The position numbers were made by a program, and so were the translations under genes. This document shows, piece after piece, positions 13,995 through 24,107 of a stretch of 64,000 bases of DNA. The stretch comes from Amycolatopsis cihanbeyliensis. Lineage in GTDB: Bacteria; Actinomycetota; Actinomycetes; Mycobacteriales; Pseudonocardiaceae. The stretch's first letter is position 1. Each line of letters opens with the position of its first letter. Under the pieces are notes generated by a model. It saw only the letters and a list, made by a program, of their open reading frames with translations. It searched no databases and was not told the origin of the DNA. The DNA is taken from the NCBI RefSeq assembly GCF_006715045.1, contig NZ_VFML01000001.1, positions 5,366,001-5,430,000 of the forward strand, given 5' to 3'.

Positions 13995-15716
13995 ATGAAC
14001 GAAACGACGCCCAGCGGAACGGACGTGGTGATGGCTGAAAAGCCCGGTACCGGCGTCAATGGAGTCAATGGAGACGTCCAGGCTCACCCGGAACAGGAAT
14101 TTGGTGCAGATCCGTTACTCGTTCGAGACACGGACCACTACACCGACGAGTATGTTAAAGGGTTCGTTGATAAGTGGGACGATCTGATCGACTGGAAGAA
14201 GCGTTACGAAAGTGAGGGCCGCTTCTTCGTCGACCTGCTCAAGTCCCGCGGTGTGAAGTCCGTCCTGGATGTCGCCACGGGTACGGGGTTCCACTCGGTA
14301 CGGCTGATCGAGGAGGGCTTCGACACGGTCAGCGTCGACGGCAGCCCCGAGATGCTGGTGAAGGCCTTCGAGAACGGGCAGAACTACGGCGGTCACGTCC
14401 TGCGGGTCGTGCACGCCGACTGGCGGTGGCTCAACCGTGACGTGCACGGCGAGTTCGACGCGGTGATCTGCCTCGGCAACTCCTTCACCCACCTGTTCTC
14501 CGAGCGGGACCGGCGCAAGGCGCTGGCGGAGTTCTACGCCGTGCTCAAGCACGACGGCGTGCTGATCCTTGACCAGCGCAACTACGACGCGATCCTGGAC
14601 AACGGGTTCTCCAGCAAGCACACCTACTACTACTGCGGCGACTCGGTGAGCGCCGAACCGGAGTACGTGGACGACGGGCTGGCGCGCTTCCGCTACAGCT
14701 TCCCGGACAAGTCGCAGTACCACCTGAACATGTACCCGCTGCGCAAGGACTACACCCGTAGGTTGCTGCGCGAGGTGGGTTTCCAGCGGGTGGAGACCTA
14801 TGGTGACTTCCAGGACACCTTCGCCGCGGACGAGCCGGACTTCCTCGTTCACGTCGCGGAGAAGAACTACCTGAGGACCACCGACGACCGGCTGAACTAC
14901 TCCACTGCCGTCAACGTCGCGCGGGACTACTACAACTCCCAGGATGCGGACAACTTCTACTACAACATCTGGGGCGGCGAGGACATCCACGTCGGGCTGT
15001 ACGAGACCCCGGACGAGGAGATCGCGCCGGCGAGCCGCCGCACCGTGCAGCGGATGGCGAGCAAGTTGCAGATCGGCAAGGACAGCCACGTGCTGGATGT
15101 CGGCGCGGGCTACGGCGGTGCCGCCAGGTATCTGGCGAAGACCTACGGCTGCAAGGTGTCCTGCCTCAACCTCAGTGAGGTGGAGAACACCCGTAACCGG
15201 CAGATGAACGAGCAGCAGGGCCTGAGCCACCTCATCGATGTGGTGGACGGCTCGTTCGAGGACCTCCCGTTCGAGGACAACCAGTTCACCGTGGTCTGGT
15301 CGCAGGATGCGATGCTGCACAGCGGTGACCGGGTGCGGGTGCTGCAGGAGATCGTCCGGGTGCTCAAGCCACGGGGTGAGATCGTGTTCACCGACCCGAT
15401 GGCCGCGGACGGTTGCGACAAGTCCGCGCTTCGACCGATCCTCGACAGGCTGCACCTAGAATCCATGGGGTCGCCCGCGTTCTACCGGCGCGAACTGAAC
15501 CGGCTGGGCGTTGCCTCGATCGAGTTCGAGGATCACACTCAGCAGTTGTCGACCCACTATGGTCGTGTCCTGCAGGAAACGGAACGACGGGAGGCGGAAA
15601 TCGCCGACAACGTGAGTGTCGAATACATCACACGGATGAAGCTGGGCTTGCAGCACTGGGTCAACGGTGGCCAGGGAGGAAATCTCTCATGGGGAATCTT
15701 CTACGTGCGTGCCTGA
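13995..15716 (+). CDS. Fused glycine/sarcosine N-methyltransferase and dimethylglycine N-methyltransferase
   Basis: The 573-aa protein contains two complete SAM-dependent methyltransferase domains. The N-terminal one (motif I VLDVATGTGFHSVRL at about residue 90) matches GSMT, which methylates glycine to sarcosine and dimethylglycine. The C-terminal one (VLDVGAGYGGAARYL at about 366, with VVWSQDAMLHSGDR) matches SDMT, which completes glycine betaine. Single-chain GSMT-SDMT is known from Actinopolyspora halophila; halophilic proteobacteria use two proteins. Asp and Glu are abundant throughout. GGAGGAAAACGTA precedes the ATG. It opens the methyl-cycle operon, and each betaine consumes three SAM, which explains the neighbours. 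Product: compatible solute for osmotic stress. Confidence 0.92.
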   Translation: MNETTPSGTDVVMAEKPGTGVNGVNGDVQAHPEQEFGADPLLVRDTDHYTDEYVKGFVDKWDDLIDWKKRYESEGRFFVDLLKSRGVKSVLDVATGTGFHSVRLIEEGFDTVSVDGSPEMLVKAFENGQNYGGHVLRVVHADWRWLNRDVHGEFDAVICLGNSFTHLFSERDRRKALAEFYAVLKHDGVLILDQRNYDAILDNGFSSKHTYYYCGDSVSAEPEYVDDGLARFRYSFPDKSQYHLNMYPLRKDYTRRLLREVGFQRVETYGDFQDTFAADEPDFLVHVAEKNYLRTTDDRLNYSTAVNVARDYYNSQDADNFYYNIWGGEDIHVGLYETPDEEIAPASRRTVQRMASKLQIGKDSHVLDVGAGYGGAARYLAKTYGCKVSCLNLSEVENTRNRQMNEQQGLSHLIDVVDGSFEDLPFEDNQFTVVWSQDAMLHSGDRVRVLQEIVRVLKPRGEIVFTDPMAADGCDKSALRPILDRLHLESMGSPAFYRRELNRLGVASIEFEDHTQQLSTHYGRVLQETERREAEIADNVSVEYITRMKLGLQHWVNGGQGGNLSWGIFYVRA

Positions 15717-15766
15717 TTCGTGGTATTGATCGGTTCCGTCGCTTCTAGAAGTAAAGGGTAGAGACA

Positions 15767-16966
15767 TTGAGTACTAATCGCAGGCTGTTCACCAGCGAGT
15801 CGGTCACCGAGGGCCACCCGGACAAGATGTCCGACGCGATCAGCGACACCATCCTGGACGCGATGCTGGCCGCCGACCCGCGCAGCCGGGTCGCGGTCGA
15901 GACGCTGATCACCACGGGTCAGGTGCACATCGCGGGCGAGGTCACCACCGATGCCTACGTGGACGTCCCGGCGCTGGTCCGGGACAAGGTCCTGGATATC
16001 GGCTACGACTCCTCCGCGAAGGGCTTCGACGGCGCCTCCTGCGGGGTGAACGTCGCCATCGACGCACAGTCCCCGGACATCGCGCAGGGTGTGGACACCG
16101 CCTACGAGAGCAGGCTGGAGAACGCCCTCGACGACCTGGACAAGCAGGGTGCGGGCGACCAGGGCCTGATGTTCGGCTACGCCTCCACCGACACGCCGGA
16201 ACTGATGCCGCTGCCGATCGCGCTCGCCCACCGGCTCTCCCGCAGGCTGACCGAGGTCCGCAAGAACGGCACGGTCCCCTACCTGCGCCCGGACGGCAAG
16301 ACGCAGGTGACCATCGAGTACAACGGCGAGGAGCCGGTCCGGCTGGACACCGTGGTCATCTCCAGCCAGCACGCCGACGGCATCGACCTCGACTCCATGC
16401 TGGCCGTCGACCTGCGGGAGAAGGTCATCGCCCCGGAGCTGGAGTCCCTCGGCCTCGACGCCAAGGAGCCGAAGCTCCTGATCAACCCGACCGGCCGGTT
16501 CGTGGTCGGCGGGCCGATGGGTGACGCGGGTCTCACCGGCCGCAAGATCATCGTGGACACCTACGGCGGCATGGCCCGGCACGGTGGTGGCGCCTTCTCC
16601 GGCAAGGACCCCTCGAAGGTGGACCGTTCGGCCGCGTACGCGACCCGCTGGGTGGCCAAGAACGTGGTCGCCGCCGGGCTGGCCGAGCGCGTCGAGATCC
16701 AGGTCGCCTACGCGATCGGCAAGGCCGCCCCGGTCGGGCTGTTCGTGGAGACCTTCGGCACCGAGAAGGTCGCGCCGGAGAAGATCCAGAAGGCCCTCGA
16801 CGAGGTGTTCGACCTGCGTCCCGCCGCGATCATCCGGGACCTGGACCTGCTGCGCCCGATCTACGCGCAGACCGCCTCCTACGGCCACTTCGGTCGGGGC
16901 GACCTGGACCTGCCGTGGGAGCGCACCGACAAGGCCGCGGCGCTGAAGGACATCGCGACATCGTAA
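15767..16966 (+). CDS. metK: S-adenosylmethionine synthetase
   Basis: MetK condenses methionine and ATP to SAM, the methyl donor for the upstream methyltransferase. The 399-aa chain has the signature SVTEGHPDKMSDAISD at the N-terminus, GAGDQGLMFGYA in the centre, and GGGAFSGKDPSKVDRSAAY, which binds phosphates and metal. A TTG start is supported by AAAGGG eight bases upstream; no ATG or GTG gives the normal N-terminus. It lies 50 bases after the betaine methyltransferase gene. The genome may also carry a housekeeping copy; this one is embedded in the betaine operon. Confidence 0.96.
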   Translation: MSTNRRLFTSESVTEGHPDKMSDAISDTILDAMLAADPRSRVAVETLITTGQVHIAGEVTTDAYVDVPALVRDKVLDIGYDSSAKGFDGASCGVNVAIDAQSPDIAQGVDTAYESRLENALDDLDKQGAGDQGLMFGYASTDTPELMPLPIALAHRLSRRLTEVRKNGTVPYLRPDGKTQVTIEYNGEEPVRLDTVVISSQHADGIDLDSMLAVDLREKVIAPELESLGLDAKEPKLLINPTGRFVVGGPMGDAGLTGRKIIVDTYGGMARHGGGAFSGKDPSKVDRSAAYATRWVAKNVVAAGLAERVEIQVAYAIGKAAPVGLFVETFGTEKVAPEKIQKALDEVFDLRPAAIIRDLDLLRPIYAQTASYGHFGRGDLDLPWERTDKAAALKDIATS

Positions 16967-23178: not shown

Positions 23179-23219
23179 GGCACCCGATCAGGTAACCGCG
23201 GACACGGCGAGAGGGAGCC

Positions 23220-24107
23220 ATGAACACGATCGCACTCGAGCTGGTACCGCCCGAGATCGAGGGCGGCGCGCAGCGGTCGGTCGAGGAGGGCCAGAAGGTG
23301 GCCGAGGCCTGCCGCGCGAGCGGGCTGACCGACGCCATCCAGCACGTGATGATCCCCGGCATGATCGCCGAGGAGGACGACCGCCCGGTCGAGATGAAGC
23401 CCAGGATGGACGTGCTGGACTTCTGGAACGCACTTCGTCCCAAGCTGGGTGACATGCGGGGGCTGTGCACGCAGGTCACCGCCTTCCACGACAAGCCGGC
23501 GCTGACGTCTCGGCTGAACGAGCTGCGTGACGCGGGTATGGACGGGATCATCTTCGTCGGCGTGCCCCGCACGATGAGCGACGGTGACGGCCCCGGCATG
23601 GCGCCGACCGACGCGCTGGCCGAGTTCACCGGCGTGGTCCCGAACCGGGGCGCGATCCTCATTCCCACGCGAGACGGCGAGCTGGGCCGTTTCGGCTTCA
23701 AGTGCGATCGGGGCGCGACCTTCGGCATGACCCAGCTGCTCTACTCCGACGCGATCGTCGGCTTCCTGCGCGACTTCGCCGCGCAGAGCAACCACCGCCC
23801 GGAGATCCTCCTTTCGTTCGGCTTCGTCCCCAAGGTCGAGCAGCGGATCAAGCTGATCGACTGGCTCATCCAGGATCCCGGCAACCCGGCGGTCAAGGAG
23901 GAGCAGGAACTTGTCGCCAAGCTGGCCGACTCCTCGTTCGAGGAGCGCAAGCGCGAGCTCGTGGAGCTCTACAAGCGCGTGACCGACGGCGTGGGCGAGT
24001 TGGGCTTCCCGCTGAGCATCCACCTCGAGGCGCCCTACGGCGTGAACAAGCCCGCCTTCGAGGTCTTCAGCGAGATGCTGGCCCACTACAGCCCGCTCGC
24101 GTCCTGA
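23220..24107 (+). CDS. Methylenetetrahydrofolate reductase-like protein (mycobacterial type)
   Basis: The 295-aa protein resembles the short MetF-like proteins of mycobacteria and relatives: an N-terminal ALELVPPE segment equivalent to the catalytic glutamate strand of MetF, IQHVMIPGMI, and a TIM-barrel pattern through DGIIFVGVPRTMSDGDGPG and RGATFGMTQLLYSDA. Some members are reported to reduce methylenetetrahydrofolate without FAD. It would supply the 5-methyl-THF used by MetH two genes upstream. GAGAGGGAGCC precedes the ATG. Terminators on both sides suggest separate or attenuated expression. The context supports the call; activity without FAD is inference. Confidence 0.78.
   Translation: MNTIALELVPPEIEGGAQRSVEEGQKVAEACRASGLTDAIQHVMIPGMIAEEDDRPVEMKPRMDVLDFWNALRPKLGDMRGLCTQVTAFHDKPALTSRLNELRDAGMDGIIFVGVPRTMSDGDGPGMAPTDALAEFTGVVPNRGAILIPTRDGELGRFGFKCDRGATFGMTQLLYSDAIVGFLRDFAAQSNHRPEILLSFGFVPKVEQRIKLIDWLIQDPGNPAVKEEQELVAKLADSSFEERKRELVELYKRVTDGVGELGFPLSIHLEAPYGVNKPAFEVFSEMLAHYSPLAS

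What the first reader, a model, noticed from the sequence alone, without database searches (positions are those of the whole stretch)
13995..24107. Betaine synthesis wired to a complete methyl cycle
One fused GSMT-SDMT gene is followed by metK, adenosine kinase, metH and ahcY, with a MetF-like gene behind a terminator. Three SAM are used per betaine, so the order supplies donor synthesis, SAH removal, adenosine trapping, homocysteine remethylation and methyl-folate supply. I see it as a self-contained osmotic-stress methylation module; in particular the inclusion of adenosine kinase is noteworthy.
Basis: partly seen in the sequence, partly recalled or inferred. Interest (0 to 1): 0.7.

Follow-up and report, generated by a model that had tools for sequence, protein, structure and literature searches.

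The report
Betaine operon carrying its methyl cycle
An actinobacterium keeps the gene that makes the salt protectant betaine in one block with the enzymes that regenerate the methyl groups it uses; the block is real and conserved in relatives, clusters of this kind have been described before, and what this study adds is mainly a shared candidate control region.

Summary
Window 13995-24107 encodes a fused GSMT-SDMT, metK, adenosine kinase, metH, ahcY and a mycobacterial-type MTHFR. In 25 of 42 gsmt-bearing genomes, among 90 of the family, metK, adoK, metH and ahcY all lie beside gsmt. Such clusters are in print: PMC7824335 lists Actinopolyspora halophila as fusedMT-MAT-o-MS-SAHase-MTHFR; here the slot of the 'o' is an adenosine kinase. 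Added here: a 21-bp palindrome, promoter and 5' RNA hairpin shared by many of these operons and without an Rfam match; GC-rich hairpins that divide the block into gsmt-metK / adoK-metH-ahcY / MTHFR; an MTHFR slot filled by either of two families; and an adenosine kinase of a second PfkB type in betaine clusters of two other phyla. Salt response could not be tested. Verdict: new member of a known kind, with a candidate new control region.

The parts
13683..13703 (+). Candidate operator GGGTGA-N9-TCACGC, directly upstream of the candidate promoter
   Evidence: GSGTGA-N9-TCACSC is exact in 25 of 80 gsmt upstream regions (window included), 31 with at most 1 mismatch, against 0.02 and 0.64 in shuffles; of spacers 4-15 only 9 stands out (spacer 10: 2 exact). 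All 25 exact sites in 136 fetched loci (1.6 Mb, most of them centred on gsmt) lie 261-409 nt before a gsmt match. Exact in 25 of 49 gsmt upstreams with metK linked and 0 of 31 without.
13714..13742 (+). Candidate promoter: -35 TTGCTA (13714-13719), 17 nt, -10 TAGGTT (13737-13742); several relatives have TTGATT and TAGATT
   Evidence: Conserved in an alignment of 18 upstream regions. The generic sigma-70 scan reported no promoter in 13300-24600.
13750..13792 (+). 5' leader RNA hairpin at the predicted transcript start, apical loop ARCGNN
   Evidence: 16 of 16 leaders of the window's group fold into a long hairpin, 14 of them with the exact 3-bp stem and 6-nt loop; median z -2.5 against -0.5 and -0.7 for control stretches; covariation; 20 model hits with E below 0.01, 19 on gsmt leaders and one on the opposite strand of this hairpin; no Rfam match.
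13995..15716 (+). Fused glycine/sarcosine and sarcosine/dimethylglycine N-methyltransferase (573 aa)
   Evidence: NF051855 over cut-off, NF041675 below cut-off; PDB 5gwx E 5e-126 and 2o57 E 3e-77.
15767..16966 (+). metK, operon copy (start read as TTG)
   Evidence: TIGR01034; in a clade of 16 operon-linked metKs, support 98/99, that does not include this genome's other metK.
16989..17074 (+). GC-rich hairpin between metK and adoK
   Evidence: Spacer z -2.4; z below -2 in 21 of 32 metK-adoK spacers, 2 of 25 metH-ahcY spacers; sequence differs between genera; arms checked.
17127..18104 (+). Adenosine kinase (PfkB family); only copy found
   Evidence: PDB adenosine kinases 4o1g/2pkf, E about 1e-106; the other three genome matches are 26-30% identical.
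18101..21655 (+). metH, cobalamin-dependent methionine synthase (1184 aa); only copy found
   Evidence: TIGR02082 1489 bits; one PF02965 match in the genome.
21676..23133 (+). ahcY, S-adenosylhomocysteine hydrolase, operon copy
   Evidence: TIGR00936; second copy at C1:2585998-2587452 near a thymidylate kinase and a response-regulator/kinase pair.
23142..23179 (+). GC-rich hairpin between ahcY and the MTHFR gene (candidate terminator or processing site)
   Evidence: Spacer z -4.9; z below -2 in 8 of 9 ahcY-MTHFR_2 and 9 of 10 ahcY-canonical-metF spacers; no T run, not reported by the scan.
23220..24107 (+). 5,10-methylene-THF reductase of the mycobacterial family PF19345; only PF19345 copy found
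   Evidence: PF19345 452.6 bits; one genome match.

Best explanation
This is a betaine-synthesis operon that carries the activated methyl cycle. The fused enzyme methylates glycine three times. MetK makes the SAM, AhcY splits the inhibitory SAH, adenosine kinase pulls that reaction forward by turning adenosine into AMP, and MetH remethylates homocysteine. The MTHFR supplies methyl-folate from a gene behind a hairpin that may have its own promoter. A shared palindrome and promoter, followed by a 5' RNA hairpin, probably control the block. Hairpins after metK and after ahcY probably set different levels for three sub-blocks. In this genome the block also provides the only MetH, AdoK and PF19345 MTHFR found, so it doubles as part of the general methyl cycle. 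Shown: gene families, conserved linkage, paralogue counts, conserved palindrome and leader hairpin. Inferred: co-transcription, salt induction, flux coupling, what the palindrome and hairpins do.
For: Families and motifs. Complete linkage in 25 of 42 and partial in 5 more gsmt-bearing family genomes; the same order in named loci. Of 17 window flank ORFs tested none had a strong counterpart beside relatives' cassettes, so the block is kept while neighbours differ. The operon metK lies in an operon-linked clade without this genome's other metK, whose neighbours are fmt, priA, coaBC, rpoZ and gmk by Pfam. MTHFR slot filled by PF19345 (8) or a canonical-type metF (11) in 19 of 28 cassettes. The same functions in another order on a Roseinatronobacter plasmid, with an adenosine kinase of a different PfkB type. 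Palindrome and leader.
Against: No expression data. 12 of 42 gsmt-bearing family genomes have no cycle gene within 15 kb (a few of these end at a contig edge), and Nocardia mexicana and many Nitrospirales MAGs carry gsmt without one. metH, adoK and PF19345 are sole copies. The palindrome is missing, at up to 1 mismatch, from 18 of 49 metK-linked upstreams. The spacer hairpins argue against one evenly expressed transcript.
Confidence: 0.78

Rival explanations
1. The adoK-metH-ahcY part is simply the cell's main methyl cycle; gsmt-metK was placed upstream of it and the block is expressed constitutively, with no special osmotic role.
For: Only MetH, AdoK and PF19345 copies found; in linked family genomes the cassette ahcY is the only one found in 12 of 26 and metH in 19 of 27.
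Against: The three congeners sampled have no gsmt but each has an adoK and a MetH of another score class. Second metK and ahcY copies persist here. The exact palindrome was met only upstream of gsmt in the loci held. Parts of different origin were recruited beside gsmt elsewhere.
Confidence: 0.15
2. Three separate transcription units (gsmt-metK; adoK-metH-ahcY; MTHFR) that travel together, each with its own control. This overlaps with the best explanation rather than excluding it.
For: Strong hairpins at these two borders: metK-adoK 21 of 32 and ahcY-MTHFR 17 of 19 spacers with z below -2, against 2 of 25 for metH-ahcY.
Against: No T runs at these hairpins and no terminator reported there; no second exact palindrome inside the block; several relatives have short metK-adoK spacers without a hairpin (L007-L011, L018-L020, L043, L046, L052). 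metH-ahcY spacers are shorter, which lowers their z in part.
Confidence: 0.3
3. The PfkB kinase is not an adenosine kinase in the cell but a ribokinase-like enzyme that happens to lie there.
For: NCBIfam gives only below-cut-off ribokinase and nucleoside-kinase matches.
Against: Residues 1-321 match solved adenosine kinases with E about 1e-106; adenosine-kinase-like PfkB proteins in two other betaine clusters.
Confidence: 0.04

Closest known systems
Actinopolyspora halophila cluster fusedMT-MAT-o-MS-SAHase-MTHFR (PMC7824335, Table 4 row seen as a passage)
   Same: Fused methyltransferase, then metK, one position marked 'o', metH, ahcY, MTHFR, in the same order.
   Different: I take 'o' as an unnamed gene; the parts I read do not define it there. 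Here that slot is adenosine kinase. MTHFR here is PF19345, whereas Actinopolyspora loci L031 and L033 have a canonical-type metF. No control region was described in the passages read.
Halorhodospira GMT-DMT-MAT-SAHase-MTHFR and Rhodobacteraceae fusedMT-MTHFR-MS-MAT-SAHase clusters (PMC7824335, passages; Tables 1-2)
   Same: Betaine methyltransferases clustered with methyl-cycle genes; the authors expect coordinated action.
   Different: Different order. The paper places the Halorhodospira methionine synthase elsewhere in the genome. A related Rhodobacterales plasmid cluster ends in an annotated adenosine kinase.
Methanohalophilus portucalensis sams-sahh-gsmt-sdmt (PMC3176816, passages)
   Same: SAM synthetase and SAH hydrolase next to the betaine genes; the authors suggest a link to regulation.
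   Different: Archaeal, separate gsmt and sdmt; no metH or adoK mentioned in the passages read.

Membership tests
Betaine synthesis by glycine methylation (GSMT/SDMT) | GSMT domain over curated cut-off | tested here: met
   NF051855 486.5 bits, cut-off 350; PDB 5gwx E 5e-126
Betaine synthesis by glycine methylation (GSMT/SDMT) | SDMT domain over curated cut-off | tested here: inconclusive
   NF041675 435.3 bits, under the cut-off of 550, though profile positions 7-276 of 278 are matched; PDB 2o57 E 3e-77
Betaine synthesis by glycine methylation (GSMT/SDMT) | Conversion of glycine to betaine | not testable with these tools
   needs an enzyme assay
Betaine/methyl-cycle gene cluster as in PMC7824335 | Methyltransferase gene clustered with MAT, MS, SAHase and MTHFR | tested here: met
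   order equal to the A. halophila row
Betaine/methyl-cycle gene cluster as in PMC7824335 | Co-expression under salt (my criterion for a functional unit) | not testable with these tools
   no expression data held
Adenosine kinase, bacterial PfkB type | Full-length similarity to solved enzymes with the PfkB signature | tested here: met
   residues 1-321 aligned to 4o1g, E 9e-107; PTGVGDAF present
Mycobacterial MTHFR (PF19345) | PF19345 over cut-off | tested here: met
   452.6 bits, cut-off 27. MTHFR activity of Rv2172c is from the abstract of PMC8765232; that Rv2172c belongs to PF19345 is recalled and was not tested
Known riboswitch or leader RNA family (Rfam) | Covariance-model match at the leader | tested here: not met
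   none at gathering in the window leader or in 8 loci, none up to E 5 for 13650-14020

The most novel reading that the evidence does not exclude
A lineage-specific control unit governs betaine/methyl-cycle operons of Pseudonocardiaceae and Actinopolysporaceae. An unknown regulator binds GGGTGA-N9-TCACGC, and in the window's group the mRNA begins with a structured hairpin with a conserved ARCGNN loop that acts as a stability or sensing element. Two further hairpins set the ratio of methyl use, recycling and supply. This would be an undescribed osmotic regulon element and leader RNA, tied to an operon in which osmolyte synthesis has captured the cell's own methyl cycle.
Probability: 0.5. Interest if true: 0.6.

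Novelty: new member of a known kind. Interest (0 to 1): 0.45.

Why it matters
Each betaine uses three SAM, and SAH inhibits methyltransferases, so the limit on salt protection may be methyl regeneration rather than the methyltransferase itself. Assembly of the same functions from different parts (two MTHFR families, two PfkB types of adenosine kinase, different gene orders) suggests that selection has found this solution more than once. The block is a ready-made design for SAM recycling in engineered strains, and the palindrome gives a handle for finding the regulator.

Tried and rejected
Known riboswitch or other RNA family in the leader: no Rfam match. TATACAAC / CAAC-GTTG palindromes at 13348-13364 and 13606-13619: hardly found in relatives' upstreams. 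Consensus scan of 13300-24600: no promoter (0.6 expected); 6 terminator-like sites against 3.7 expected, none at the metK-adoK or ahcY-MTHFR hairpins; one on the + strand lies in the leader at 13940-13956 and was not followed up. A sequence-conserved RNA between metK and adoK: sequences differ between genera, only the hairpin recurs. RNAalifold on the first leader alignment A1 gave only 5 pairs with little covariation, probably because MAFFT misaligned the stem arms. For the pair count and model (A2) I used 14 of 16 leaders, leaving out L005 (arms out of register) and L010 (near copy of L009); I chose the structure from folds of these same sequences, which favours it, and one of the five measures (further pair types, 366 of 500 shuffles as high) gives no support. 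The model also gave 9 hits with E between 0.01 and 1, three of them outside gsmt leaders. Viral copies: no stretch matched. Saframycin-type SAM-recycling clusters (recalled) were considered as a parallel; the listing did not let me test it. Left out of counts: spacers shorter than 35 or longer than 450 nt or holding N; 7 of 35 loci cut too short for the MTHFR count; seven duplicate rows of the metK tree, and the second metK of G058 (L097), which failed the length filter. Over all lineages 'operon-linked' metK is not one clade (5 changes). Paper searches. Searches found nothing; no listing pointed to adenosine kinase in a betaine cluster; no search was made for the palindrome itself. Most subscription papers are not held, among them Nyyssola 2001.
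Full report
Observation. The six genes are present, intact and on one strand at the stated places. The first encodes a GSMT domain joined to an SDMT domain; the SDMT match is below its NCBIfam cut-off. metK, metH and ahcY pass their cut-offs. The third gene aligns over residues 1-321 to PDB chains named adenosine kinase (that they are the M. tuberculosis enzyme is recalled) and overlaps metH by ATGA. The last gene is PF19345, named mycobacterial MTHFR. Rv2172c of M. tuberculosis was shown to be an MTHFR (abstract of PMC8765232); its membership of PF19345 is recalled.

Other copies in this genome. metK has a second copy whose neighbours match fmt, priA, coaBC, rpoZ and guanylate kinase families. 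ahcY has a second copy near a thymidylate kinase and a response-regulator/kinase pair. metH (PF02965), the adenosine kinase and PF19345 have none. A strong metE-type match with an 835-aa open frame lies on the other contig. One PF02219 match, weak (37.7 bits) but over that family's cut-off of 24, lies in a demethylation-type cluster, so a second MTHFR-like activity is not excluded.

Conservation. In 90 genomes of the same family 42 have a gsmt match at E up to 1e-60; 40 of these have the fused form (with G071 split over two contigs). Typing the hit positions for these 42 into a script gave 25 with metK, adoK, metH and ahcY all within 15 kb, 5 with part and 12 with none; some gsmt genes lie at contig ends, so 25 is a lower bound. 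In genomes with the gene linked, the cassette holds the only copy found of metH in 19 of 27, ahcY in 12 of 26, adoK in 11 of 28 and metK in 3 of 30. The three congeners sampled have no gsmt match. Named relatives show the same order. Of 17 flanking window ORFs tested, none found a strong counterpart beside other cassettes; only 26-33% matches of an HTH protein and of one reverse-strand ORF appeared. Some relatives do share neighbours among themselves, for example 14 Actinopolyspora/Saccharopolyspora-type loci. The operon metK lies in a clade of 16 operon-linked metKs (98/99) that leaves out this genome's other metK; elsewhere in the tree operon and other copies mix. For this group the cassette behaves as an inherited or transferred unit.

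Which parts are needed. Of 35 loci with gsmt, metK and ahcY, 28 could be classed: 8 carry PF19345-type and 11 a canonical-type MTHFR directly after ahcY, 9 neither, 7 were cut too short (PF02219 confirmed by Pfam in two). On a Roseinatronobacter plasmid the annotated order is methyltransferase, metF, an unlisted stretch that matches metH, metK, ahcY, adenosine kinase. That kinase matches other adenosine kinases best in the PDB (3ubo) and the window's hardly at all (49 residues, E 1e-4). A spirochaete MAG has metK, a kinase of the same second type, ahcY, gsmt, sdmt. Adenosine kinases of two PfkB types have thus ended up in betaine clusters. Against necessity: many gsmt genes stand without cycle genes.

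Control region. Upstream regions of 80 gsmt genes (window and L003-L081) share GSGTGA-N9-TCACSC: 25 exact, 31 with at most one mismatch, against 0.02 and 0.64 in shuffles. In 136 loci (1.6 Mb, mostly around gsmt) there are 25 exact sites, all 261-409 nt before a gsmt match, one for each of the two gsmt genes of L032. It is exact in 25 of 49 metK-linked upstreams and 0 of 31 others. In the window itself the only exact match is the one at gsmt; with one mismatch allowed, 3 matches against 1.56 expected is not exceptional. A TTGAT/TTGCTA - TAGATT/TAGGTT promoter-like pair follows, though the generic scan did not report it. The predicted transcript starts with a hairpin. In 16 leaders of the window's group (Amycolatopsis, Prauserella, Saccharomonospora and relatives) all fold into a long hairpin, 14 with the exact apical loop, z from -1.8 to -5.2, median -2.5, controls -0.5 and -0.7. 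Pair counts on 14 of them give 86% paired cells (30-49% when slid) and 6 of 10 pairs changed on both sides; the number of further pair types is not above shuffles. A model built from them has 20 hits with E below 0.01: 19 gsmt leaders, among them L013 and L070 that were not used, and the opposite strand of the window's own hairpin. Ten Saccharopolyspora/Actinopolyspora-type leaders share the palindrome but have a different hairpin. No Rfam family matches.

Punctuation. Spacers with z below -2: metK-adoK 21 of 32; before the MTHFR gene 17 of 19; metH-ahcY 2 of 25; gsmt-metK 9 of 45, all nine outside the window's group. Spacer length differs between classes and affects z, but the ahcY-MTHFR spacers (mostly 88-114 nt) are no longer than many gsmt-metK spacers. 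I read this as three sub-blocks with different levels; that is inference.

Prior art. PMC7824335 (passages; Tables 1-2) gives A. halophila as fusedMT-MAT-o-MS-SAHase-MTHFR and similar clusters in Halorhodospira and Rhodobacteraceae. PMC3176816 (passages) reports sams-sahh-gsmt-sdmt in Methanohalophilus and suggests a regulatory link. PMC7042295 (passages) reports three THF-metabolism genes upstream of the methyltransferases in H. halophila. The finding is thus a new member of a known kind. The identity of the extra gene, the interchangeable MTHFRs and the control region go beyond what I read.

Limits. No expression, enzyme or salt data. The genome-wide distribution of the palindrome was not tested. 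The three rivals are not all exclusive of the best explanation.

Noticed in passing
L095 3234-9663 (G000:C1 about 1.247-1.254 Mb): FAD-oxidoreductase/GcvT fusion, GcvT protein, weak MTHFR-like protein and formate-THF ligase in a row: looks like a THF-dependent demethylation (dimethylglycine-type) cluster, the reverse direction of the window's pathway.
   Followed up: partly
   Followed up: partly
L124 2362-9671 (G027): metK-adoK-metH-ahcY cassette in a genome without a gsmt match, next to a BTAD-type regulator: the recycling cassette may serve other methylations too.
   Followed up: partly
L134 and L112 (G069); L016, L024-L028, L036, L039: Operon and second metK are 98.4% identical in DNA in one of five genomes compared (82-91% in the others), and several contigs end inside the operon metK, as expected if two near-identical copies break assemblies.
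   Followed up: partly
90 genomes: PF02965 scores fall into bands of about 100-125, 307-350 and 416-433 bits. The cassette-linked MetH is of the lowest band in 26 of 27 family genomes (G003 is the exception, 429 bits); the three congeners of this genome have the middle band, one of them also the lowest.
   Followed up: no
L003 10001-11716: Nocardia mexicana carries the closest named gsmt (86%) without cassette genes in the locus and without the palindrome.
   Followed up: partly
L074, L075, L076, L079: Saccharopolyspora and Halosaccharopolyspora genomes carry a second match covering only the GSMT half besides the fused gene.
   Followed up: no
window 28001-30000: GC falls to 57.4% against 72-74% on either side; the ORF at 28223-29170 has no Pfam match.
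   Followed up: no
L015 12872-16006: 3.1 kb (with 200 N) separate metK from adoK in Saccharomonospora iraqiensis subsp. paurometabolica.
   Followed up: no
window 13940-13956: Terminator-like hairpin with a T-rich tail in the leader shortly before the gsmt start, on the + strand; such sites are not above chance in this region, but an attenuator was not excluded.
   Followed up: no
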